41,579 bases of DNA from Candidatus Gastranaerophilales bacterium (lineage in GTDB: Bacteria; Cyanobacteriota; Vampirovibrionia; Gastranaerophilales; Gastranaerophilaceae). Shown piece by piece: positions 8,233-25,728 of the stretch. Position numbers and translations under genes: made by a program. The stretch covers positions 1 to 41,579 of the forward strand of contig CALUPH010000017.1 in the NCBI GenBank assembly GCA_944322615.1, read 5' to 3'. The number at the start of each line of letters is the position of its first letter. Position 1 is the first letter of the stretch. The notes below the pieces were generated by a model. The model was given only the letters and a program-made list of their open reading frames with translations, was not told where the DNA came from and ran no database searches.

Positions 8233-8253
8233 TGAATATTTATTATATTATTT

Positions 8254-8285
8254 AAAATAGACAAGCATAATTGCTTGTCTATTTT
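8254..8285. terminator. Bidirectional rho-independent terminator
   Basis: A perfect 14-bp stem (AAAATAGACAAGCA / TGCTTGTCTATTTT) with a TAAT loop, followed by a T tract on the plus strand and matched by A's on the other side. It sits between the convergent ends of ilvD and the helicase gene and can serve both. Confidence 0.9.
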
Positions 8286-8300
8286 TGTTTTAGATTTAAT

Positions 8301-11300
8301 TTATATAATATTTAAATTGCAATAAGATTTTTTATATGGACAAAAACGGCAAGAAGTTTCTGTTTTGTTAGGATTAAATTTTAGTGATTTAATGTCAAAA
8401 ATTGCTTTCTTAAATTTATCTAATATTTCAATACAATTTTCCTTTGAAAGTCTTAATTCTAACGGTTTTTTATATTCTCTTGGAAAAATAAATATAGTTG
8501 AAATATCATCATAATCACAATTTAATTCTTTACATAAAAAGTGTTTATAAATTGCCATTTGGTTATAATAATCAGAATGGTTACCTTCAGGACTTATTTG
8601 TTTTTCATCTTGTCTATCGCCGGTTTTGTATTCATATATTATATATTTATTGTCTGGTAATTTATCTATTCGGTCTATTTTTCCGGTAAACAGTTCTCCG
8701 TCTATATCAAAATTGAAAGAGTGTTCTGTTTTATACAATTGTTCAACAGGCGTCATTCTTAATCTGTCATAACAGCAATCACCATCTTTATCAATATTAC
8801 ATAATACTTTTGAACCATCATTTAGCATTCTTTTAAGTTCTAATTTACTCGAAATTGGTAAAGATATTAGTGTATCATTAAATTTTTGTATAAATTGGCT
8901 TTTTGTTGGAAAGACTTTTTGCTCTATTGCCATATTTATAGCGTATTCATATGCAGCATGAATTGCTGTACCAAAATGTGCCTTATCTGCATTTCTTGTT
9001 TTTGCTTCCAATCCAAATATATTTGTGTATAAGTACTGTCTAGGGCAAGAAATATATCCATTGATTTTTGATACTGAGTACGCTTTCCCGTATATAGTGT
9101 TTTTTATATATTCGTTGAATTCTTTTTCATAGTCCCGATCACAAACCGTTAAAAATTTTATTATTTCTTCTTCATAACATTTATTTGATTTATCTATTTG
9201 TTCATATTTTTGGGGATTAATAAGTTTTATTATATTTTCTGTTGTTAATAAATCTAACGGCTCTATATCCTGACCATTATTATTTATTTTTGTATAAGAT
9301 AGATATAAAGAATGTTTTGCTCTTGTCATTGCAACATAAATTAATTTTATAAGATTTGCTTTTTTTATCTTGTTTTTCATATCATCAGAAATATTTTTTC
9401 CTGTAAAACTATCTTTTGATATATCATCTTCAATGCTTAATGGAATAATAGGATTTTCAAAATCATTTTTTTTCTTTATTAAGTATGGAATATACACATA
9501 TTCAAATTCCATGCCTTTTGAACCATGATAGGTTACCAATTGTATTGCATTTTGTTTAACAGGTGGTTTATCTGTATAAATTTTAACATCTGCATTCATT
9601 GTATCTTCAATATATTTTATAAAGAATTCAAAGCTGCAAGGTTTTTCGATATCTGAGAAACTTTCTGCCAATTCAACAAGCTTTTTGATTCCTGATATAT
9701 TTTCGCTTCTGTTTATTGGATTATTAAAATAATATTCAAAGATGCCTGTTTTATTACCTATTGCAAGAATTGTATCTTTTAAATTCATTGTTTGTTTGAT
9801 ATCTTTTAATTCATCATAGGTGTTAATAAATTTTTCAAGTCTTTCAGGATTAGAAAATTTAATAGTTTTCTCTTTATTTCTGATTTTTGTTTTATATAAA
9901 TATCCATTATTTTTATATTCTCTTATACAATCAATAAAAGTATTATATGAATTCTTTTGTGTATATATAAATTCATAATCATTTTCGTTTATATTAAAAG
10001 GTTTTGATAAAATCATTTTAAAGAAAGAATCATTATAAAAACTTGAGTTTGCTAAAAATTGCATGTATAAAAACATAATAATAAATGATTGAACATCGAA
10101 TAAATTCTTACCCTTTGCTGTTTCATATGGAATATTTGCTGATTGTAATAAATTTCCATATTGAGTTAACTCGTCGTTAGTTCTTGTTAAAATAGCAATT
10201 TCAGATAGTTTCTTTTCTCCTGTTTTTTCATCTCTAGGACAATTCGGTGAATTAATCAATTCCTTTATTTCTTCAATTATATGTACTTTCTCTTGAAGAG
10301 CGTCTCTGTATATAAGGCATCTGACATCCTTATTTTTATTTGATAAATCTTTATTTGAAGCTATTAATTCTTTTGAAATATTGTAACTTTTAAAATATTG
10401 ATCTTTTTCAAGACTTATATCATCTTGCAATATTATTTGTCTTGCTACATTGAGTATTTTCTCTGTTGAACGCATATTCTTTTTAAAACAAATTACATCA
10501 TTTTCTTTTACATTTAATTTAATAATGAAATTTTTTACAGAATCTAATCTGGCACCTTGGAAGGTATATATGATTTGGTCATCATCGCCTACAACAAAAA
10601 TATTTTTCTTATTCATATTATTTGCAAGATTAAATAATATTTCATTTTGGGCTATATTTGTATCTTGATATTCATCGGCTATTATATAGTCATAATTTGA
10701 TGCAATTTTTTTTGTAAAAGTCTCATTATTTTCAAATTCATCAAGAACTAAAGATATCATATCTCCAAAATCAAGGAAATTCTTTTTTTGCATTTTTGAT
10801 TTGTATAGTTCATACAGTTCCCAAACTTCTTCTGCTTGTGCAACTTTCTTTTCTGCTTCAAGCAATGATGATGTTTTTTGTGGATATCTGTTTGTATGTT
10901 GTTGCCAGTATTCTGTTCTTTTTATTACTAATGGCTGCCAGTCCGGATTATTCTTTATGTTATCAAAATATTTATCTTTATTTAGTCTGTATTTTTTTAT
11001 TTCTTCTATACGTTCTAATATTTTATCTATAAAATGATAAGGTCCGTTTTTTTCTGTTGTAAAGGTTGTCGGTTCTTTTTCATCTTTATGTTTTGTGATT
11101 CTCTCATCTATACATTCTTTCATAAATGTTGTTTTTAATGTATCGGTTATAATCTTAATATTATTAATACCAAAAATATCCGGATTATTTTGTATTACAT
11201 CAAGGCAAAAACTGTGATATGTATATATATTTATATTTGTATTTACCTGACCTAATGCTTTTTCAAGACCTTTTTTCATCTCTGATGCGGCTGTCTCTGA

Positions 11301-11474
11301 AAAAGTTAAACATAAAATCTTATCTGGTGATATGCCGGATTCTATCATTTCTTTAATTCTCTGAGATATTGTAAATGTTTTTCCTGTCCCGGGGCCTGCT
11401 AATATAAGAAATGCACCTTCTCTTTTATAAGTATCTATTGCGTTTTGTTGTTCTTTATTCGCTTTTTGTACCAT
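8301..11474 (-). CDS. UvrD/PcrA-like superfamily 1 helicase fused to a RecB-type nuclease
   Basis: Single polypeptide of 1057 aa. The helicase part carries Walker A AGPGTGKT (26-33), the DEYQDTN Walker B/motif II, a VGDDDQIIYTFQGA motif III, a YHGSKGMEFEYV motif V region and AMTRAKHSLYLSY (motif VI). The C-terminal 250 residues form a PD-(D/E)XK domain of RecB/AddB type: DRIDKL followed by IIYEYKTG gives the D and ExK residues. Cysteines resembling the AddB iron-sulfur clasp frame it (ISCPRQ upstream; SCRFCPY and SYC near the C-terminus). The likely role is DNA end resection and repair, as in AdnAB/AddAB, although related helicase-nucleases also occur in phage defence. The ATG has AAGGA eight bases upstream. 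The gene stands alone between ilvD and an accessory region. Confidence 0.88.
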   Translation of the reverse strand: MVQKANKEQQNAIDTYKREGAFLILAGPGTGKTFTISQRIKEMIESGISPDKILCLTFSETAASEMKKGLEKALGQVNTNINIYTYHSFCLDVIQNNPDIFGINNIKIITDTLKTTFMKECIDERITKHKDEKEPTTFTTEKNGPYHFIDKILERIEEIKKYRLNKDKYFDNIKNNPDWQPLVIKRTEYWQQHTNRYPQKTSSLLEAEKKVAQAEEVWELYELYKSKMQKKNFLDFGDMISLVLDEFENNETFTKKIASNYDYIIADEYQDTNIAQNEILFNLANNMNKKNIFVVGDDDQIIYTFQGARLDSVKNFIIKLNVKENDVICFKKNMRSTEKILNVARQIILQDDISLEKDQYFKSYNISKELIASNKDLSNKNKDVRCLIYRDALQEKVHIIEEIKELINSPNCPRDEKTGEKKLSEIAILTRTNDELTQYGNLLQSANIPYETAKGKNLFDVQSFIIMFLYMQFLANSSFYNDSFFKMILSKPFNINENDYEFIYTQKNSYNTFIDCIREYKNNGYLYKTKIRNKEKTIKFSNPERLEKFINTYDELKDIKQTMNLKDTILAIGNKTGIFEYYFNNPINRSENISGIKKLVELAESFSDIEKPCSFEFFIKYIEDTMNADVKIYTDKPPVKQNAIQLVTYHGSKGMEFEYVYIPYLIKKKNDFENPIIPLSIEDDISKDSFTGKNISDDMKNKIKKANLIKLIYVAMTRAKHSLYLSYTKINNNGQDIEPLDLLTTENIIKLINPQKYEQIDKSNKCYEEEIIKFLTVCDRDYEKEFNEYIKNTIYGKAYSVSKINGYISCPRQYLYTNIFGLEAKTRNADKAHFGTAIHAAYEYAINMAIEQKVFPTKSQFIQKFNDTLISLPISSKLELKRMLNDGSKVLCNIDKDGDCCYDRLRMTPVEQLYKTEHSFNFDIDGELFTGKIDRIDKLPDNKYIIYEYKTGDRQDEKQISPEGNHSDYYNQMAIYKHFLCKELNCDYDDISTIFIFPREYKKPLELRLSKENCIEILDKFKKAIFDIKSLKFNPNKTETSCRFCPYKKSYCNLNII

Positions 11475-11712
11475 TGACTTTTCCTTCTTTTGTTTGAGAA
11501 ATGTTTGTTTTTTTATTATACAATATTGATGTTTTTGTTTCTTATATTAAATCTTTTATTAATATAAATAAATGATGTGTCATCTGTGGTTATATATTAG
11601 TTCTTTTAATAAAACATACTAAAAGCATAAATACCAGTTTATTTGTGCAAAAAATTGTATAACCGTTTTTGGCATAGTTCTTCTTTATAATATAAAATAA
11701 GGAGGTGAAAAT
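11475..11712. promoter_or_regulatory. Divergent promoter region between the helicase and a small-protein gene
   Basis: There is no gene here. A minus-strand TATAAT at 11520-11515 could be the -10 of the helicase gene; its -35 is poor. A plus-strand TATAAT at 11686-11691 lies ten bases before a strong AAGGAGGTG SD (about 11699-11706), so the small-protein transcript would have a very short leader; no good -35 is visible at 17 bp. The rest is AT-rich with no stable hairpin recognised. Confidence 0.4.
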
Positions 11713-11865
11713 ATGTCGAAAATCATTACAACTAACCATAAAGTTATTAATGTATTTGGAATTAAGATTTGTGATATTTGGGAAGATTACATAGAAAGAA
11801 GGTTAATAAAATATGATCTTCAAATAAGTGATTTTAATATAGAAGAAAAGGAAGATGATAATTGA
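11713..11865 (+). CDS. Small hypothetical protein, 50 aa
   Basis: A short gene with ATG at 11713 and TGA at 11863-11865, supported by a near-perfect SD (AAGGAGGTG, about 6 bp spacing) and a TATAAT at 11686. The product is not recognised. It has a positive or neutral N-terminal half with a WEDYIERRL patch (residues 23-31) that could be an amphipathic helix, and a strongly acidic tail ending EEKEDDN. There is no signal peptide or membrane segment. A small protein with its own strong SD beside a nuclease region could be a regulator or antitoxin-like partner, but nothing in the sequence proves that. Confidence 0.6.
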   Translation: MSKIITTNHKVINVFGIKICDIWEDYIERRLIKYDLQISDFNIEEKEDDN

Positions 11866-12094
11866 ACTTTAGAAAATATTAATTAAAAGTTAAGGATTTT
11901 ATGAATTTGTTTCTTTTATATAGTATATGTTAAGAGTATATTTGTATATATTTTTTAACTCTAGAAATTCTATAAATTAATAATTTATAAATAAAAATGC
12001 TAGAATATCTTGGCGTTGTTTTTTTAATATATAACCAAAGTTGTCGTGCGAGAGTTTATATTTAATTATGTACAAAAAAAAGGAAGGAGTTATT
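11866..12094. other. Intergenic AT-rich stretch
   Basis: 229 bases between two small genes. It holds only AT-rich sequence, with the SD of the next gene (AAGGAAGGAG, about 12080-12089) at its end. I see no RNA gene, strong terminator or clear promoter. Confidence 0.5.
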
Positions 12095-12280
12095 ATGTCA
12101 ATTTTATTCGTACAAGAAAGAAATGGATTGGTATATGTATATGGAGAAAATAATATCCAATTATTTTCAAGATGTGGTGAACTATATGGTTATACGTCTT
12201 CATCCGTGACTATAAAAAGCGGAAACCTGTTGCATATTTATAATGAAAAAGGTACTCAAATAGGTTCGCGTCCTTGTTAA
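12095..12280 (+). CDS. Small hypothetical beta-rich protein, 61 aa
   Basis: The ATG at 12095 is chosen because AAGGAAGGAG lies just upstream; an upstream in-frame TTG at 12041 has no SD and would add 18 unlikely residues. The sequence alternates beta-strand-like segments. Two related halves are visible: VYVYGENNIQLFSRCG and LLHIYNEKGTQIGSRPC share the pattern hydrophobic-Y-x-E-x-x-x-Q-x-x-S/G-R-x-C. This suggests an internal duplication with one cysteine per half (the last residue is Cys). No signal peptide or known family is recognised. It could be a free-standing blade-like module or the partner of another protein. It precedes the TPR gene and is separated from it by a hairpin. Confidence 0.6.
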   Translation: MSILFVQERNGLVYVYGENNIQLFSRCGELYGYTSSSVTIKSGNLLHIYNEKGTQIGSRPC

Positions 12281-12296
12281 ATTATTTTAATATTGA

Positions 12297-12326
12297 AAAC
12301 ATAGCTGTATTTATACAGCTATGTTT
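12297..12326 (+). terminator. Hairpin after the 61-aa gene, possible terminator
   Basis: AAACATAGCTGTA pairs perfectly over 13 bp with TACAGCTATGTTT around a TTTA loop. The following T run is only three bases, so termination may be weak or the hairpin may instead be an mRNA stability element in front of the TPR gene, which starts at 12345. Confidence 0.6.
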
Positions 12327-12344
12327 AACTAGAAGGAATTTACT

Positions 12345-13232
12345 ATGCGTGATGAACATTTCTACACCAGAAGCATGAAACTTAATCCAAAAAATTTAGC
12401 AGAATATTATATAGGAAGAGCCGATTTTTATTGTTTGGAAAAAGACTATGATAAAGCATACAGCGATTTTTGTGAGGCTATTAAACTCGGAGTTGATGTT
12501 TCACGGAATTATAATTATAAAGTTTGTCTTGATTATATTGAGGCTGAGAAAAAGATTGAAATATTAACTGCAAAAATTCATAAAAATCCTGAAAGTGATT
12601 TTTTGTATTATAAAAGAAGTCGATTTTATTTGTTAAAGAATAAAATTAAAGAGGCATTTAATGATGTTGTAAAAATGATTCAGATAAATCCTAGTGTTGA
12701 AAATATATACTTACTTAATGAAGTTTGTGACAAGATAAAGGAATATAATGTAAATAATGCAACCAAAATTGCGAATAAGAAACAATTAATTGAAGCATAT
12801 AAGCTAAGAATAAATTATGCTGAAGAGCAAATATTACTCAGGAAAAAAGAAGATTATTGGCAATATAAAGCAGAACGTGATCTTGACGAAATTTTGAAGC
12901 TCACAAAAGATAAAGCTTTAGCTTTATATTTACGAGTTAATTTTTATGAAAATATTAATAAGATCGGGAATGCAATTTTATACTGTAAAAAAGTTGTTGA
13001 ACTTTCAAAATCACAAAAAAATAAGACATTGACATATTTGTATGCAACAAAACTAATTGCATTATATGCAAATGAAGAAAAATATGATAAAGCAATGCAA
13101 ATAGCTTTACAATATCAGGAAAAACCTGTTTCTGAAGAATTAAAGAAAGGATTAAAATATATAAATAAATTTGCTTCAATGCAGGTAGATGTATTAAGAA
13201 AAAATATAAGAACATCATTAAAAAGGGATTAA
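12345..13232 (+). CDS. Tetratricopeptide-repeat-like protein
   Basis: 295 residues, mostly helical and lysine-rich. TPR-like units are visible: AEYYIGRADFYCLEKDYDKAY near residues 19-39 with the next helix ending in DFCEAIKLG, a second around 87-113 (YYKRSRFYLLKNKIKEAF), and a weaker one near 190-265. There is no signal peptide or membrane segment, so it is probably a cytoplasmic scaffold that binds another protein. An AAGGAA SD precedes the ATG. The HTH gene follows after 24 nt and is probably co-transcribed. Its target is unknown; the nearby regulator and nuclease genes are candidates only by position. Confidence 0.75.
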   Translation: MRDEHFYTRSMKLNPKNLAEYYIGRADFYCLEKDYDKAYSDFCEAIKLGVDVSRNYNYKVCLDYIEAEKKIEILTAKIHKNPESDFLYYKRSRFYLLKNKIKEAFNDVVKMIQINPSVENIYLLNEVCDKIKEYNVNNATKIANKKQLIEAYKLRINYAEEQILLRKKEDYWQYKAERDLDEILKLTKDKALALYLRVNFYENINKIGNAILYCKKVVELSKSQKNKTLTYLYATKLIALYANEEKYDKAMQIALQYQEKPVSEELKKGLKYINKFASMQVDVLRKNIRTSLKRD

Positions 13233-13256
13233 AAATAAGAAATAGAGGGATCAAAA

Positions 13257-13622
13257 GTGAAAAATAAATTAGACAAGATAAGATATTCGAGAATGTCAGA
13301 TTTATTGCAACTAATACACATAATGATGGCAGAACCGAAAGGTGTAAGTCTTGATGATATAATGGATGAATTTAATGTTTCCAGACGAACAGCAGAAAGG
13401 ATGCGTGATGCCGTTATAAGCATACTGCCACAGGTAGATGTTGTAAATATTCAGGGGAAAGTAAAACGCTGGGGTTTTGTTAATTATTCAATGAAAGAAA
13501 TTGTTAGATTTACTGATAAAGAAATTTTGATAATGGAAGTAATTAAACATAATATTAAAAATGCTATTTTTACTGAAATTGATTCAATTATAGATAAAAT
13601 GAAAATCCTAAGAGAAAAATAA
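13257..13622 (+). CDS. Solo helix-turn-helix protein resembling the N-terminus of WYL regulators
   Basis: 121 residues with a winged-HTH segment at about 14-62 (VSLDDIMDEFNVSRRTAERMR is the core). It resembles the DNA-binding part of DeoR/WYL-domain regulators, and the sequence continues into the linker (FTDKEILIMEVI) that normally leads into the WYL domain, but the frame stops at 13622. Full-length relatives have about 320 aa. Only 59 bp separate the stop from the next promoter and start, so no WYL remnant fits downstream: it is a genuine short form or a deletion derivative. Start is GTG at 13257 with AGAGGGA upstream; ATG at 13293 is an alternative that would keep the HTH. It probably regulates the adjacent nuclease or TPR genes (inference). 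Confidence 0.72.
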   Translation: MKNKLDKIRYSRMSDLLQLIHIMMAEPKGVSLDDIMDEFNVSRRTAERMRDAVISILPQVDVVNIQGKVKRWGFVNYSMKEIVRFTDKEILIMEVIKHNIKNAIFTEIDSIIDKMKILREK

Positions 13623-13649
13623 ATGATAATTTAATATTTCTAAACTAAT

Positions 13650-13678
13650 TTGTATTTTTCTAGGTGGAATATTATAAT
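13650..13678 (+). promoter_or_regulatory. Sigma70-type promoter of the nuclease gene
   Basis: TTGTAT at 13650-13655 and a perfect TATAAT at 13673-13678, separated by 17 bp. Transcription would begin near 13685, which rules out a TTG start at 13681 for the nuclease gene and favours the ATG at 13702. One TATTTCTAAA copy lies just upstream at 13635-13644. Confidence 0.65.
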
Positions 13679-13701
13679 CATTGAGAATTATGGGGGTTGG
13701 T

Positions 13702-15351
13702 ATGTCAGTTAAGATTAACAAAGAAGATAATGCTGCAATAGAAAGTTTGAAGAATTTTATTTGTAATAATGTGGAATTAAGTAAGTTAGAAGAAAAGTAT
13801 AAAAAATTTAATATATTTGATTGCTTAGGGGTAAATAAACAAGAACTTAAACATTCAAATTTTTTGGCTTGGCTTTTTAATCCAAGATTAAACCAAGGGA
13901 TAGGTGATTTTTTTGTTAAAGAATTTTTAAAGAATGTATTAATAAATGATCAAAATCCACCTAGTAAAAACAAACCATCTGTTTTTGATATTGATTGTTT
14001 TGATATGACAGATATTGAAGTTATAAGAGAATATAAAAATATTGATATTTTTATACTTGATGAAAAAAATAAATTTTTATGTGTAATTGAGAATAAAATA
14101 TATTCAAAAGAAAATAATAATCAATGCCAAAATTATCACAAAGCTATAGAAGAAAAAGAAAAATTCAAAGAATATAAAAAGTTGTATGTATATTTAAAGC
14201 CAACTTTAGATGATGATATTAGCGATAAGAGTTTTATTCCTATTGAATATAAAGAAATAATTAATATTTTGTCTAATATAATATCAAGAAAAATGGTAAA
14301 TCAGAATTTACTAATTGTTTTACAAGATTATAAAGATTTGTTAAATCGTGATATTTTAAAAGATGAGGACAAAAAGAAATTATGTTCAGAAATATATAAA
14401 AAACATAAAAATTCTATTAAACTTTTAAATAATATTTGTATCAATAATGAAGAGTTGCAAACGAAAATTTGTGATAAAATACATAAAAAAATTAAAGAAA
14501 AAGGATTTATAATATTTAAAGAAAAAAATAAAAGATGGATTAATTTCACGCATAATTCTCTAAGAAAATACGAAAAATATTTCAGTTTTGTTATTAATAA
14601 TGATACGAAAAAAAATTTTATTGTTGATATCCGTTTTAAAGTTGATAATGAAGTTTCAGCCGAATTAAAAAATATTTATAAAAATTGTAGAACAAAAGAA
14701 AATGTAATAAATAAAATTATAGATGAAGATACAAATGAAAAAGAAAACTATTTGTATTATGAGGGAAAAATAGAAGAGAAACTTAATAAAATTGATGAAT
14801 ATCTTTCAGAAGAAAAAATAAAAGATATAAAAATCGTTTTAGAAAAAAAATATCCTAATATTAAAGAGCAAAATAGAAGTCAAGAAGTTAAAGGGTCATT
14901 TGAACACAGAAAAGTTACAGATAAAGAAGATATTAGTGATTACGTCAAAGAAATATACAGAAAAGTATATAAAAATCATAAACAAGCAATTGATATTATA
15001 ATAGATAATATTAATATAAATGATTTACAATATGCTCTTTCCAGATTCTTAATAGAATATTTGGAATCAATAGATTATAAGATAGAAAAGTATAATACAC
15101 GAAATATTAGTTTCCGAAGAAAAAGTAATTCTGAAATTTGTTTTTATATAGTAAATAATACAAATAAGGAAAATAATGGTGATATTAAAATTAGGCAGAA
15201 TAATAACAAATGGGAAGATATCTTGACTAAAGACGATTTCAAAACTCTTCCGGAGGAATTTGAATATAATGATTGTGAAATTCCTGATACTTGTAAAGAA
15301 AAAATAAAAAAGATTTTGAATAATTATTTGAGTAAATATAAAAACTTATAA
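13702..15351 (+). CDS. PD-(D/E)XK nuclease-family protein (PDDEXK_4-like)
   Basis: Very Lys/Asn/Ile-rich protein of 549 aa. The N-terminal domain matches the PDDEXK_4-type signature: HSNFLAWLFNP near residue 51, then Asp115 in NIDIFI, and Glu130-x-Lys132 in VIENKIYSKE, followed by the Q-x-x-x-Y segment seen in this family. These residues form a plausible D...ExK metal-dependent nuclease centre. The C-terminal 350 residues are helical and not recognised. ATG at 13702 is favoured because a GGGGG patch lies five bases upstream and the promoter at 13650-13678 leaves a short leader; ATG at 13690 is possible. Base composition is more AT-biased than the flanking housekeeping genes, in keeping with transfer. 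Members of this family often sit in defence islands; the function here is unproven. Confidence 0.78.
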   Translation: MSVKINKEDNAAIESLKNFICNNVELSKLEEKYKKFNIFDCLGVNKQELKHSNFLAWLFNPRLNQGIGDFFVKEFLKNVLINDQNPPSKNKPSVFDIDCFDMTDIEVIREYKNIDIFILDEKNKFLCVIENKIYSKENNNQCQNYHKAIEEKEKFKEYKKLYVYLKPTLDDDISDKSFIPIEYKEIINILSNIISRKMVNQNLLIVLQDYKDLLNRDILKDEDKKKLCSEIYKKHKNSIKLLNNICINNEELQTKICDKIHKKIKEKGFIIFKEKNKRWINFTHNSLRKYEKYFSFVINNDTKKNFIVDIRFKVDNEVSAELKNIYKNCRTKENVINKIIDEDTNEKENYLYYEGKIEEKLNKIDEYLSEEKIKDIKIVLEKKYPNIKEQNRSQEVKGSFEHRKVTDKEDISDYVKEIYRKVYKNHKQAIDIIIDNININDLQYALSRFLIEYLESIDYKIEKYNTRNISFRRKSNSEICFYIVNNTNKENNGDIKIRQNNNKWEDILTKDDFKTLPEEFEYNDCEIPDTCKEKIKKILNNYLSKYKNL

Positions 15352-15367
15352 GGTTTAAGTTTGTAAG

Positions 15368-15397
15368 TATTTCTAAAAATAGATATATATTTCTAAA
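15368..15397 (+). repeat. Two direct TATTTCTAAA repeats downstream of the nuclease gene
   Basis: TATTTCTAAA occurs at 15368-15377 and 15388-15397, ten bases apart, and a third identical copy lies upstream of the same gene at 13635-13644. They could be operator half-sites, remnants of insertion, or chance in AT-rich DNA. Confidence 0.4.
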
Positions 15398-15439
15398 TAC
15401 CCCGTCAAAAATAAATAAAAAATAGGTAAATATTAGTGT

Positions 15440-23322: not shown

Positions 23323-23344
23323 AAAACGGCATATGCCGTTTTTT
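23321..23344. terminator. Bidirectional terminator
   Basis: AAAAAACGGCAT and ATGCCGTTTTTT form a 24-bp perfect palindrome (effective loop ATAT) at the convergent ends of the flavoprotein and EF-hand genes. Tracts of A and T on both sides let it work in both directions. Confidence 0.9.
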
Positions 23345-25571
23345 ATTCTAATAAAGCTCTTAACATAACCGCAACACCAAGTTGTTGGTCAACATAGTTA
23401 GGATCGAACTGACCGTCGGCAACATATTTGCCTTTTTCATAATTGTCAGTTCCAGCCCATACATAAGGTGATGGAAGTCCTTTGTTTGCATAGCCCATAC
23501 CGTTATAGTGCTCTGCATAGTTATAATATGTTTCAATGTTATCAGGATCTATTGTAGATAAGTCACTTCCGTAATTTGTAACAGCATCTATAGCTGCTTC
23601 TGTCCAGTCTTCAAAATAGATACCTTTTGGTACAATGGTAGTTGTTTGTCCGAGTTTTTGACCATTGTGTAAGTATGTATCAAAATTGCCTGAACCTTCA
23701 CGCCAGTGAATTGCTGCAACTAATTCAGCCGGCATGCCGGTTGCTTCTTCAACGGCTTCATATTTGTCTTTGTTCTTTTCCCAGTTTTCTTTGAATAATT
23801 CAAGTTCATTTGCTTGTCTGTCTGAAAGGTTTAATTCAAAATCGAAGTCAAAATCACTAACTGAATTTTCTTTTTCTGTTTTTTCTGCTTGTTTTACGTT
23901 TATTTGTTCATTTATTTTATCAAGTTCACCTTGGGCAGTTGTTAGTTTGTCCTGAGCAGTTTTGAGTTCGGTATCTTTAACTGTTTGAACATTATCTTTT
24001 GCTTCGTTATAAGCTTGCATTGCTTCTTTTGTTTCAGGACCGCAAACTTTTGCTATTTCATCTTCTATTTCGCTTCTTTCCTTTTCAAGTTCAGATAATG
24101 CGTTTTCCTCTGTTTCTAATTGAGTTTCAAGCTCTTGTTTTTCATCTTTAAGTGTATCAAGTTTTTCTTCATCTTTTTCAAGTTTATTTTTAGCTTCTGT
24201 AATTTTAGTCTCTAATTCTGCTTTTTTATTATTTATTTCAGCTTGTTTTTCTTCATCATCTGAAGATTGACCGGATAATGATGATAAAGCTGATTCAAGA
24301 GCTGATATATTAGATTTGTCTGCAGAAACGACGGATTCTTGTTCTGTAATTTCACCATCTTTGTTATTAATATCAATTTTTAATCCGTCAACAGTATCTT
24401 CTTTCTCTGCTATTGCATTTAAGTTGTCTTCTCTTTGCTGCTTTAATTCTTCTGATATATTATCATCATTTTCAACAGCTTCATCATATGCTTCTTTAGC
24501 TTTTTCGCAGTCTTCTTCTGCTGATTTGACCGCAGAATTTTCACCGGAATAAACTTCGTTTACTCCTTCTTGAGCATCCTTAACTTCACTTTCTTTCTTA
24601 GTTTTTTCACTTTCAAGTTCTTCTAAGGACATATTTTCAATTGTTTTAGGTTCAGTTGCATTAGAACTTGAGAAGGAATTGCTGCTTCCTGAAGTTCCAC
24701 CGCCACTAAAACCGCCGGCACTGCTAGTGCCTCCGCTGGATGATGTGCCGGTTGCAGGTGTGGTTTCTGCAGCTTTATCTTCAAGTTCTTCTTCTACTTT
24801 GTCATCTATTTCTTTTGATACTTCTTCAAGGTCATTATCATAAGAAAATTTGCCATCAATTATATCGTCAAAAGCTCGTTTTATATCTGCTTCAGTAAGT
24901 TCACCTGTATTGTTGCCGTCATAACCTTTGATAAATTCTTCAAATTTAGCTTTTTCTTCATCACTAAGTACACCATCACCATCTTCGTCTAAAGTTTTGA
25001 TGACTGTTTTATTTGAATATACTTTGTCGAGTAGTCTGTTAATTATATTTGAACCACTTTCAGCTAAATTTTCTTCTTCCGTTCCTTGTGTCGGATTGTT
25101 ATTAATTTCTGTTACTGCCTCAGATAATTTGTCAAAAGATATAGAGGTTCCGTTCTCGTCTGTTTGTGCAATTTGACCTAAGAACATTTCAGCTTCTTCT
25201 TTGCTTAAGTTTCCGCTTTTATCTGTATCTAAAGCATTAATTACATTTTCATTTCCTAAGGCACTGTTAACTAAATCCGTAATTATCGATGATCTATTTT
25301 CTGATTCAAATGTATCGGAATTAGAATCTTCGGGTTCTACAAATTTTCCGTCAACAAAATCCATTGACATTATTTCACTTAAGCTTTTTGAAAAAATAGA
25401 TACATCTGCTCCCACTTCTTCGACCAGATAATCTTTAAATTCGTTGCTATACATGAAAATACTTATGTCAGAATCTTTTAACGTATTCTGTTCTTGGATA
25501 TTTTTACCTGATTCTGCTAACTTTTCCTCAATATATGATTGGAAACCGAGTTTTAAACTTTCAAGATTCAT
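23343..25571 (-). CDS. EF-hand, coiled-coil and lysozyme-like multidomain protein
   Basis: 742 aa. EF-hand loops: DTDKSGNLSKEE (115-126), DEDGDGVLSDEE (195-206), DGNNTGELTEAD (218-229) and a degenerate one at 138-149, so at least two would bind calcium well. Residues 270-305 form a Gly/Ser/Thr-rich linker. About 310-580 is a long, highly charged coiled coil. The last 150 residues form a lysozyme/transglycosylase-like domain, with a candidate catalytic Glu625 in IHWREGSGNF and a conserved-looking GIYFEDWTEAAIDAV segment resembling phage and bacterial muralytic domains. There is no signal peptide, which is odd for a wall hydrolase. The start at ATG 25571 has only a weak SD. It is a monocistronic gene, divergent from perR. 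Confidence 0.75.
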   Translation of the reverse strand: MNLESLKLGFQSYIEEKLAESGKNIQEQNTLKDSDISIFMYSNEFKDYLVEEVGADVSIFSKSLSEIMSMDFVDGKFVEPEDSNSDTFESENRSSIITDLVNSALGNENVINALDTDKSGNLSKEEAEMFLGQIAQTDENGTSISFDKLSEAVTEINNNPTQGTEEENLAESGSNIINRLLDKVYSNKTVIKTLDEDGDGVLSDEEKAKFEEFIKGYDGNNTGELTEADIKRAFDDIIDGKFSYDNDLEEVSKEIDDKVEEELEDKAAETTPATGTSSSGGTSSAGGFSGGGTSGSSNSFSSSNATEPKTIENMSLEELESEKTKKESEVKDAQEGVNEVYSGENSAVKSAEEDCEKAKEAYDEAVENDDNISEELKQQREDNLNAIAEKEDTVDGLKIDINNKDGEITEQESVVSADKSNISALESALSSLSGQSSDDEEKQAEINNKKAELETKITEAKNKLEKDEEKLDTLKDEKQELETQLETEENALSELEKERSEIEDEIAKVCGPETKEAMQAYNEAKDNVQTVKDTELKTAQDKLTTAQGELDKINEQINVKQAEKTEKENSVSDFDFDFELNLSDRQANELELFKENWEKNKDKYEAVEEATGMPAELVAAIHWREGSGNFDTYLHNGQKLGQTTTIVPKGIYFEDWTEAAIDAVTNYGSDLSTIDPDNIETYYNYAEHYNGMGYANKGLPSPYVWAGTDNYEKGKYVADGQFDPNYVDQQLGVAVMLRALLE

Positions 25572-25690
25572 TTTCCCATTACCTTTTTCTTTTTCTTTTT
25601 CTTTATAGTCGGCATTTTAAGTTTTTTTCTTTAGTTTTTGTAACATTTTTTAATAATTCTGTTTATCGTAGTGAAAATATCAGATAAATG

Positions 25691-25728
25691 TTGCATAATA
25701 ACAATTGTAAAAGTGATAATGGATATCA
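25691..25728 (+). promoter_or_regulatory. perR promoter with an overlapping inverted repeat
   Basis: TTGCAT (25691-25696) and GATAAT (25715-25720) form a -35/-10 pair with 18-bp spacing. TGATA-ATGGA-TATCA at 25714-25728 is an inverted repeat over the -10, six bases before the perR ATG. This is the expected place for autoregulation, though it only loosely resembles a Fur/Per box. Confidence 0.45.

What the first reader, a model, noticed from the sequence alone, without database searches (positions are those of the whole stretch)
11475..15410. Accessory cluster of small proteins, TPR protein, solo HTH and PDDEXK_4-like nuclease next to a helicase-nuclease
Five genes without housekeeping roles lie together: a 50-aa and a 61-aa protein with strong SDs, a TPR protein, a WYL-like HTH without its ligand domain, and a PD-(D/E)XK nuclease. 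The helicase-nuclease with AddB-like cysteine clasp borders them. Helicases, PDDEXK proteins, WYL-type regulators and TPR scaffolds recur in defence islands (established for the families), but I know of no named system with this set. The defence role is inference.
Basis: partly seen in the sequence, partly recalled or inferred. Interest (0 to 1): 0.65.

Follow-up and report, generated by a model that had tools for sequence, protein, structure and literature searches.

The report
Mobile nuclease cassette with split regulator
A gut bacterium carries a recently acquired island whose nuclease, small partner protein and two-part gene switch recur on mobile elements beside known anti-virus genes, so it is probably a virus-defence cassette with an undescribed kind of switch.

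Summary
The genes are real and the island is larger than the finding: window 8249-15437, helicase-nuclease included, is missing from two close relatives (86 and 84 bp in its place) and is AT-richer than its flanks. The host is a Gastranaerophilales MAG (titles of related loci). It is not one conserved five-gene system but an assembly of modules. (1) A 61-aa beta-repeat protein (S61) and a PDDEXK_4 nuclease (PADLOC candidate PDC-S26) recur together: S61 lies within three genes of 15 of 36 such nucleases in 383 genomes of the order, about 0.1 expected; a full WYL regulator does so for 18 of 36. (2) The TPR gene and the 'solo' HTH form a tight pair in 4 loci; the HTH is a real subfamily (clade of 6, support 100/99), not a broken WYL protein. 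Besides the window, it precedes Ssp-like genes (with TPR) and a type I methylase/RhuM-Fic/SIR2-like run (without TPR). (3) The helicase-nuclease ends WYL-McrB-McrC operons elsewhere. Best reading: a mobile defence cassette whose nuclease is held off by a split TPR + winged-HTH switch. The association with defence genes is shown; function is inferred.

The parts
8249..15437 (.). Whole acquired island (helicase-nuclease plus five genes), between ilvD and a CbiA/MinD-like ATPase gene
   Evidence: blastn: G006 has 86 bp and G001 84 bp between the two flanks; GC 25.7% and 23.3% in the island, 31.3% and 31.6% in the flanks
8254..8285 (.). Terminator-like hairpin between ilvD and the convergent helicase-nuclease gene
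8301..11474 (-). UvrD-type helicase fused to a PDDEXK_1 nuclease (1057 aa), accessory paralogue
   Evidence: PF00580 4.5e-58, PF12705 2.2e-20; 57-68% relatives in 5 of the 34 other same-genus genomes, and a 39% paralogue elsewhere in the own genome
11713..11865 (+). 50-aa protein (s50), strong SD
   Evidence: Relatives at E<=0.001 in 10 of 383 genomes, own genome included; beside WYL or WYL-McrBC genes in L143, L291, L292, L293
12041..12047 (+). TTGTCGT element 53 bp before the S61 start; candidate operator or promoter element
   Evidence: TGTCG[TC] lies 50-53 bp before the TPR start in three other TPR loci and 53 bp before S61 here
12095..12280 (+). S61: 61-aa all-beta repeat protein, recurrent neighbour of PDDEXK_4 nucleases
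   Evidence: AF2 mean pLDDT 95.5
12297..12326 (.). Perfect 14-bp inverted repeat, 2-nt loop, just before the TPR gene
12345..13232 (+). TPR protein (295 aa), candidate sensor half of the regulator
   Evidence: paired with the solo HTH in 4 loci
13257..13622 (+). Free-standing WYL-type winged HTH (121 aa), candidate repressor half
   Evidence: clade of six solo HTHs, support 100/99; alignment
13702..15351 (+). PDDEXK_4 nuclease (549 aa; upstream TTG start at 13681 possible) with an extra C-terminal part, perhaps a partial repeat
   Evidence: PF14281 5.8e-34, PDC-S26 3.3e-73; D115, E130, K132 invariant in 35 sequences; weak second profile hit 390-513

Best explanation
The island is a horizontally acquired defence cassette built from modules that mobile elements of Gastranaerophilales exchange. 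Proposed working: S61, TPR protein, solo winged HTH and nuclease are transcribed together from a promoter upstream of S61. The solo HTH, which is the DNA-binding part of a WYL regulator without its sensing domain, represses that promoter, probably at the TTGTCGT element. The TPR protein, made from the adjoining gene, takes the place of the missing WYL domain: it senses an infection or DNA-damage signal and releases the HTH from DNA. The PDDEXK_4 nuclease then accumulates and cuts phage DNA or, as abortive infection, cell DNA. S61, shaped like one to two propeller blades, binds the nuclease as chaperone, inhibitor or targeting subunit. The helicase-nuclease, transcribed the other way, is a second defence effector of the kind that ends McrBC operons elsewhere. 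Shown: gene content, horizontal gain, conserved pairs, conserved upstream element, neighbours. Inferred: repression, sensing, S61 role, anti-phage effect.
For: Island absent from G006 and G001, AT-rich. S61 within three genes of 15 of 36 nucleases, 0.085 expected; the two occur together in 18 genomes, 3.1 expected. Full WYL gene within three genes, same strand, of 18 of the same 36. Integrase, resolvase, terminase, DUF5681 in those loci. TPR-HTH pair with gaps of -7 to 25 bp in 4 loci; solo HTH clade 100/99. The pair precedes SspC-like and SspD-like genes in G342 (SspD 5.4e-90; SspC C-terminal part 7.9e-44) and a solo HTH precedes a type I methylase, a RhuM-Fic protein and a SIR2-like protein in G220. 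TTGTCGT element at -50 to -53. WYL-McrB-McrC-helicase-nuclease runs in G007 and G242.
Against: No anti-phage data for any of these genes. Only two of the four TPR-HTH pairs adjoin recognisable defence genes; in G021 and G066 the neighbours are unknown. L275 and L290 hold a solo HTH without a TPR relative in view; L141, L169 (contig end) and L170 hold a TPR without the HTH. The nuclease's relatives outside the order had no S61 or WYL beside them in 65 of 65 loci, so S61 is not needed by the family as a whole. The TTGTCGT element was picked by eye after an alignment, and is absent before the TPR in G021:C46 and G260 and at -85 in G142. S61's propeller likeness has Foldseek E>0.04.
Confidence: 0.5

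Rival explanations
1. The TPR-HTH pair is a regulator of the mobile element itself (lysogeny, excision or copy number) and has no functional tie to the nuclease; the window holds remnants of an element in which a defence gene and an element regulator ended up side by side.
For: In G021:C46 and G066:C1 the pair lies divergently beside a conserved element block and a small repressor-like gene, and TPR without HTH lies near a Mu-type transposase in G021:C95. The window island holds no integrase or transposase.
Against: The pair directly precedes defence-type genes in the window and in G342, and a solo HTH precedes RM-type genes in G220. The related full WYL proteins sit with the nucleases themselves.
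Confidence: 0.25
2. Plain accretion: several unrelated accessory genes piled up in one permissive site, each working alone (solo nuclease, solo helicase-nuclease, orphan regulator).
For: The full set occurs nowhere else in what was searched; the helicase-nuclease stands alone in G008 and G021:C66; G011 carries a different accessory gene at the same site.
Against: S61-nuclease and TPR-HTH adjacency is far above chance; same-strand spacing of 25-80 bp from TPR to nuclease suggests one operon.
Confidence: 0.15
3. S61 and the nuclease are a toxin-antitoxin pair that keeps the mobile element in the cell, with no phage-specific role.
For: Small protein directly upstream of the nuclease (15 of 41 nuclease genes in the table, three of whose loci were chosen for their S61 hit); element context.
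Against: 21 of 36 nucleases had no S61 within three genes; S61 also precedes other genes and stands alone; in the window S61 is separated from the nuclease by two genes.
Confidence: 0.1

Closest known systems
PADLOC candidate PDC-S26 (PDDEXK_4 single-gene defence candidate)
   Same: Nuclease matches its profiles at 3.3e-73; conserved D, ExK and QxxxY residues
   Different: About 150 extra C-terminal residues; here with S61 and a TPR-HTH pair, whereas PDC-S26 is a single-gene candidate whose activity is untested as far as I know (recalled)
CapW/BrxR WYL-domain defence regulators (PMC9122601 passages, PMC9122588 abstract)
   Same: Winged HTH about 42% identical to the N-terminus of full WYL proteins that sit with helicase-nuclease or McrBC genes
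   Different: No WYL and no WCX domain; a separate TPR protein is encoded next to it
Two-protein defence regulators CapH+CapP and CapK+CapS (PMC13373217 passages)
   Same: A sensor gene and a separate winged-HTH gene in tandem near immune genes
   Different: Sensor is a TPR protein, not a kinase (CapK) or peptidase (CapP, recalled); CapK and CapS also carry STAS domains
McrBC type IV restriction
   Same: Relatives of the helicase-nuclease, s50 and WYL lie in McrB-McrC runs
   Different: No mcrB or mcrC in the window island
Gabija (GajAB)
   Same: Helicase part hits GajB profiles, as UvrD helicases do
   Different: No GajA-type gene among the island ORFs; GajB lacks the fused PDDEXK_1 domain (recalled)

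Membership tests
PDC-S26 / PDDEXK_4 nuclease | Profile match above curated cut-off | tested here: met
   PF14281 118.1 bits against 22.3; PDC-S26 3.3e-73
PDC-S26 / PDDEXK_4 nuclease | Catalytic D...ExK residues | tested here: met
   D115, E130, K132 and Q141 invariant in 35 sequences
PDC-S26 / PDDEXK_4 nuclease | Nuclease and anti-phage activity | not testable with these tools
   needs expression and plaque assays
WYL regulators (CapW/BrxR) | N-terminal winged HTH related to theirs | tested here: met
   about 42% identity to full WYL proteins of the order; HTH_11 23.9 bits against a cut-off of 25
WYL regulators (CapW/BrxR) | WYL and C-terminal (WCX) domains | tested here: not met
   121 aa, no PF13280 or PF25583; a full relative has both
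CapH+CapP / CapK+CapS type two-protein regulators | Separate wHTH gene in tandem with a sensor gene at defence operons | tested here: inconclusive
   TPR-HTH tandem in 4 loci; two of the four precede defence-type genes; sensing untested
CapH+CapP / CapK+CapS type two-protein regulators | Kinase or peptidase domain in the sensor | tested here: not met
   P0004's matches at E<=1 are TPR-type models and one sub-threshold Adenine_glyco hit; no bacterial sensor kinase or peptidase domain
RRNPP peptide sensors | HTH and TPR in one chain plus a secreted pro-peptide | tested here: not met
   two separate chains; the pro-peptide part was not tested
Gabija | GajA (OLD ATPase/TOPRIM) gene beside GajB | tested here: not met
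   PADLOC scan of all six island proteins and the next gene listed no GajA (for the helicase-nuclease only the best 25 of 46 families were shown)
Complete prophage or transposon | Integrase, transposase or terminase in the island | tested here: not met
   none among the six island proteins by Pfam or PHROGs

The most novel reading that the evidence does not exclude
A previously undescribed portable two-protein regulator, a TPR sensor plus a free-standing WYL-derived winged HTH, which mobile elements place in front of different defence operons (PDDEXK_4 nuclease here, Ssp-like genes in G342, and by the HTH alone a type I methylase run in G220), so that the sensing half of a WYL switch has been replaced by a separate protein; together with a propeller-blade-like small protein (S61) that partners PDDEXK_4 nucleases.
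Probability: 0.33. Interest if true: 0.72.

Novelty: new variant of a known kind. Interest (0 to 1): 0.55.

Why it matters
Defence operons are dangerous to leave on, and the known switches (CapW/BrxR, CapH+CapP, CapK+CapS) were found only recently. A TPR plus free winged-HTH switch would be another solution and points to an unknown infection signal. The S61-nuclease link gives the PDC-S26 candidates a testable partner, at least in this order. The data also show that prophages and integrative elements of Gastranaerophilales, a group for which one full-text search found only two papers that also mention prophages, carry a shuffled set of defence genes.

Tried and rejected
Broken WYL gene: rejected; downstream frames hold no WYL remnant (one search shows the frame closing after the HTH), the solo HTHs form one clade, and of 44 matches listed in 116 family genomes only the window's was a short frame, the other 43 being frames of 251-390 aa with a clear score gap (214 against at most 136 bits). 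Two further rows labelled 'solo' (L091, L098) are not in that clade; L091 is probably a wrongly picked ORF.

Phage relatives: TPR and S61 gave no match in 50,697 phage records; TPR, nuclease alone and HTH gave none in viral contigs; the nuclease alignment gave 5 and S61 gave 2 viral contigs.

C-terminal repeat of the nuclease: pairwise BLAST saw nothing, a profile saw a weak second hit of 6.9 bits, and AF2 gives a like order of helices and strands at pLDDT 36-59; left open. Fold search of the nuclease had no hit at E<=0.001, only weak hits, among them several PD-(D/E)XK enzymes. Viral fold search of S61 likewise weak, many WD/propeller-type proteins.

Literature: full-text searches for PDDEXK_4 and PF14281 found 0 papers; tetratricopeptide + WYL + phage + transcriptional repressor found 0. 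These cover only the open PMC library. Other searches.

Site conservation beyond the nearest four relatives could not be judged: the loci are not all turned to one strand, so I drew nothing from it. G018 has no ilvD beside the ATPase gene and was not counted as an empty site; G011 has another gene there.
Full report
What was checked. The window is one whole contig (C17) of a 1.96 Mb, 29-contig genome, 96% complete. The five genes and the bordering helicase-nuclease are intact and as described.

An acquired island. Against four close relatives (ATPase gene 98-99% identical), blastn shows G006 collinear on both sides with 86 bp where the window has 8249-15437, and G001 with 84 bp; G011 has a 310-aa gene there and G018 has other genes next to the ATPase gene. 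So two of four show an empty site, one another occupant, one a rearrangement. The island has 25.7% GC (helicase part) and 23.3% (rest), the flanks 31.3% and 31.6%. The helicase-nuclease is part of it: relatives at 57-68% occur in 5 of the 34 other same-genus genomes searched, while a 39% paralogue lies elsewhere in the own genome. No integrase or transposase was found among the island proteins.

Module 1, S61 and nuclease. In 383 genomes of the order, the nuclease gave 36 genes in 34 genomes (E<=1e-12, 37 matches, two of them pieces of one gene) and S61 48 matches in 35 genomes (E<=1e-5). Eighteen genomes hold both, 3.1 expected. I read the surroundings of all 36 nuclease genes: 35 in the table, one (G019) in a short locus. 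The table has 41 rows; I dropped six for this count because they were not or were fetched for their S61 (L150, L158, the second L156 gene, L271, L281, L285). S61 lies within three genes on the same strand in 15 of 36, the window included; 0.085 were expected for random placing. A full WYL gene does so in 18 of 36; S61 or WYL or solo HTH in 22 of 36. Some contigs end close to the gene, so these are lower bounds; elements that spread between genomes also make the cases less independent than they look. The usual order is S61, nuclease, sometimes a second PDDEXK_4-like gene, WYL. Near these genes lie phage integrase, resolvase, terminase, DUF5681 and ParB-methylase genes (Pfam on representatives), so the carriers are prophages or integrative elements. 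My labels 'XRE' and 'DnaB-like' rest on looks, not on a profile. McrC is close to 3 of the 41 nuclease genes, a helicase-nuclease to 4 (window included), twice in tandem with a nuclease (L147 42 bp, L258 62 bp).

Outside the order. A scan of 84,980 species gave 207 relatives of the nuclease, 80 kept. By title or by matching contig I count 15 of these 80 as Gastranaerophilales, leaving 65. S61 was found in 6 and WYL in 9 of the 15, and in 0 and 0 of the 65. The profiles were trained on Gastranaerophilales, so remote WYL proteins could be missed. The nuclease family is thus widespread and usually without these partners; the cassette is a habit of this order's elements. S61 relatives do exist in two unrelated viral contigs.

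Module 2, TPR and solo HTH. The TPR family is rare: 7 of 383 genomes at E<=1e-12, one of them weak (G213, 1.4e-14; not fetched further). In four loci (window, G021:C46, G342:C93, G066:C1) a 120-125-aa HTH follows the TPR gene with gaps of 25, -7, 12 and 9 bp. In L141, L169 (contig end) and L170 the TPR stands without it; L275 and L290 have the HTH without a TPR relative in view. A tree of 48 HTH sequences puts six solo HTHs in one clade with 100/99 support. In 116 genomes of the family, 43 of the 44 listed matches to the solo-HTH profile are frames of 251-390 aa and only the window's is short.

What the HTH stands next to. In G342 the pair precedes, after 323 bp, a 455-aa protein matching the C-terminal part of SspC (7.9e-44) and an SspD-like protein (5.4e-90); no SspB was noticed in the stretch read, so this is Ssp-like, not a proven Ssp system. 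In G220 a solo HTH precedes a type I methylase, a RhuM-Fic protein (PDC-S23) and a weak SIR2-like protein. In G021:C46 and G066 the next genes match nothing. So two of four pairs, and one further solo HTH, adjoin defence-type genes.

Upstream element. Aligning the five TPR upstream regions drew my eye to TTGTCGT. TGTCG[TC] occurs 50-53 bp before the TPR start in G021:C95, G342 and G066, at -85 in G142, not in G021:C46 or G260, and not before the window's TPR; but 53 bp before the window's S61. Its density is about 0.2 per kb per strand. Of 38 other S61 genes, 3 have it within 200 bp, none at that distance. I read this as one operon starting at S61 in the window, with a shared promoter or operator element; it was chosen after looking, so it needs a footprint. 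A perfect 14-bp inverted repeat lies between S61 and TPR.

Module 3, helicase-nuclease and s50. In G007 and G242 a WYL gene is followed by McrB, McrC and the helicase-nuclease; in G025 it lies in an element with a Mu-type transposase, next to a WYL gene and s50. Elsewhere it stands alone (G008, G021:C66). The s50 domain lies beside a WYL gene in G025, G003:C62 and, with McrBC, in G005 and G342:C6.

Structures. S61 is predicted with high confidence as all-beta (pLDDT 95.5). Among its best PDB matches are propeller fragments that assemble into propellers (6r5x, TM 0.62), but at E of about 0.05 or more, so the likeness is suggestive only. The nuclease model is good in the catalytic half and poor beyond residue 290.

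How it most likely works. CapW represses its operon and is thought to lose DNA on ligand binding (PMC9122588, abstract read); BrxR has winged HTH, WYL and dimerisation domains (PMC9122601, passages read); CapK and CapS split sensing and DNA binding over two proteins and answer single-stranded DNA (PMC13373217, passages read). By analogy the TPR protein would sense and the solo HTH repress. Nothing here tests that. S61 as nuclease partner rests on adjacency alone.

Verdict. Ordinary in being a mobile defence-type island with a known nuclease family; new in the conserved S61-nuclease association and in the TPR plus solo winged-HTH pair, for which I found no description in the searches named (of these only the listings were seen).

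Noticed in passing
window 23343-25571 (-): A 742-aa gene (weak EF-hand hits only) lies in a second stretch, about 23327-25693, that is missing from the close relatives.
   Followed up: partly
L144 2629-9930 and L278 1-6060: WYL, McrB, McrC and helicase-nuclease in one run: a possible extended type IV restriction operon.
   Followed up: partly
L167 2174-3100; also L291, L292, L293: A reverse-transcriptase gene (RVT_1; PADLOC RT_VI 2.9e-60) recurs in the same elements, often beside a DnaB-like ATPase gene.
   Followed up: no
L140, L141, L168, L169, L171: A conserved block of large unknown proteins (two about 400-aa paralogues, about 700 aa, about 400 aa) marks an undescribed element of this order.
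   Followed up: no
L275 129-1145 (-) and L279, the 319-aa gene: S61 repeats fused to longer proteins: a 338-aa protein in L275 and a 319-aa protein in L279.
   Followed up: no
L155 9515-10447: At the same ilvD/ATPase site G011 carries a different 310-aa gene, so the site has been filled more than once.
   Followed up: no
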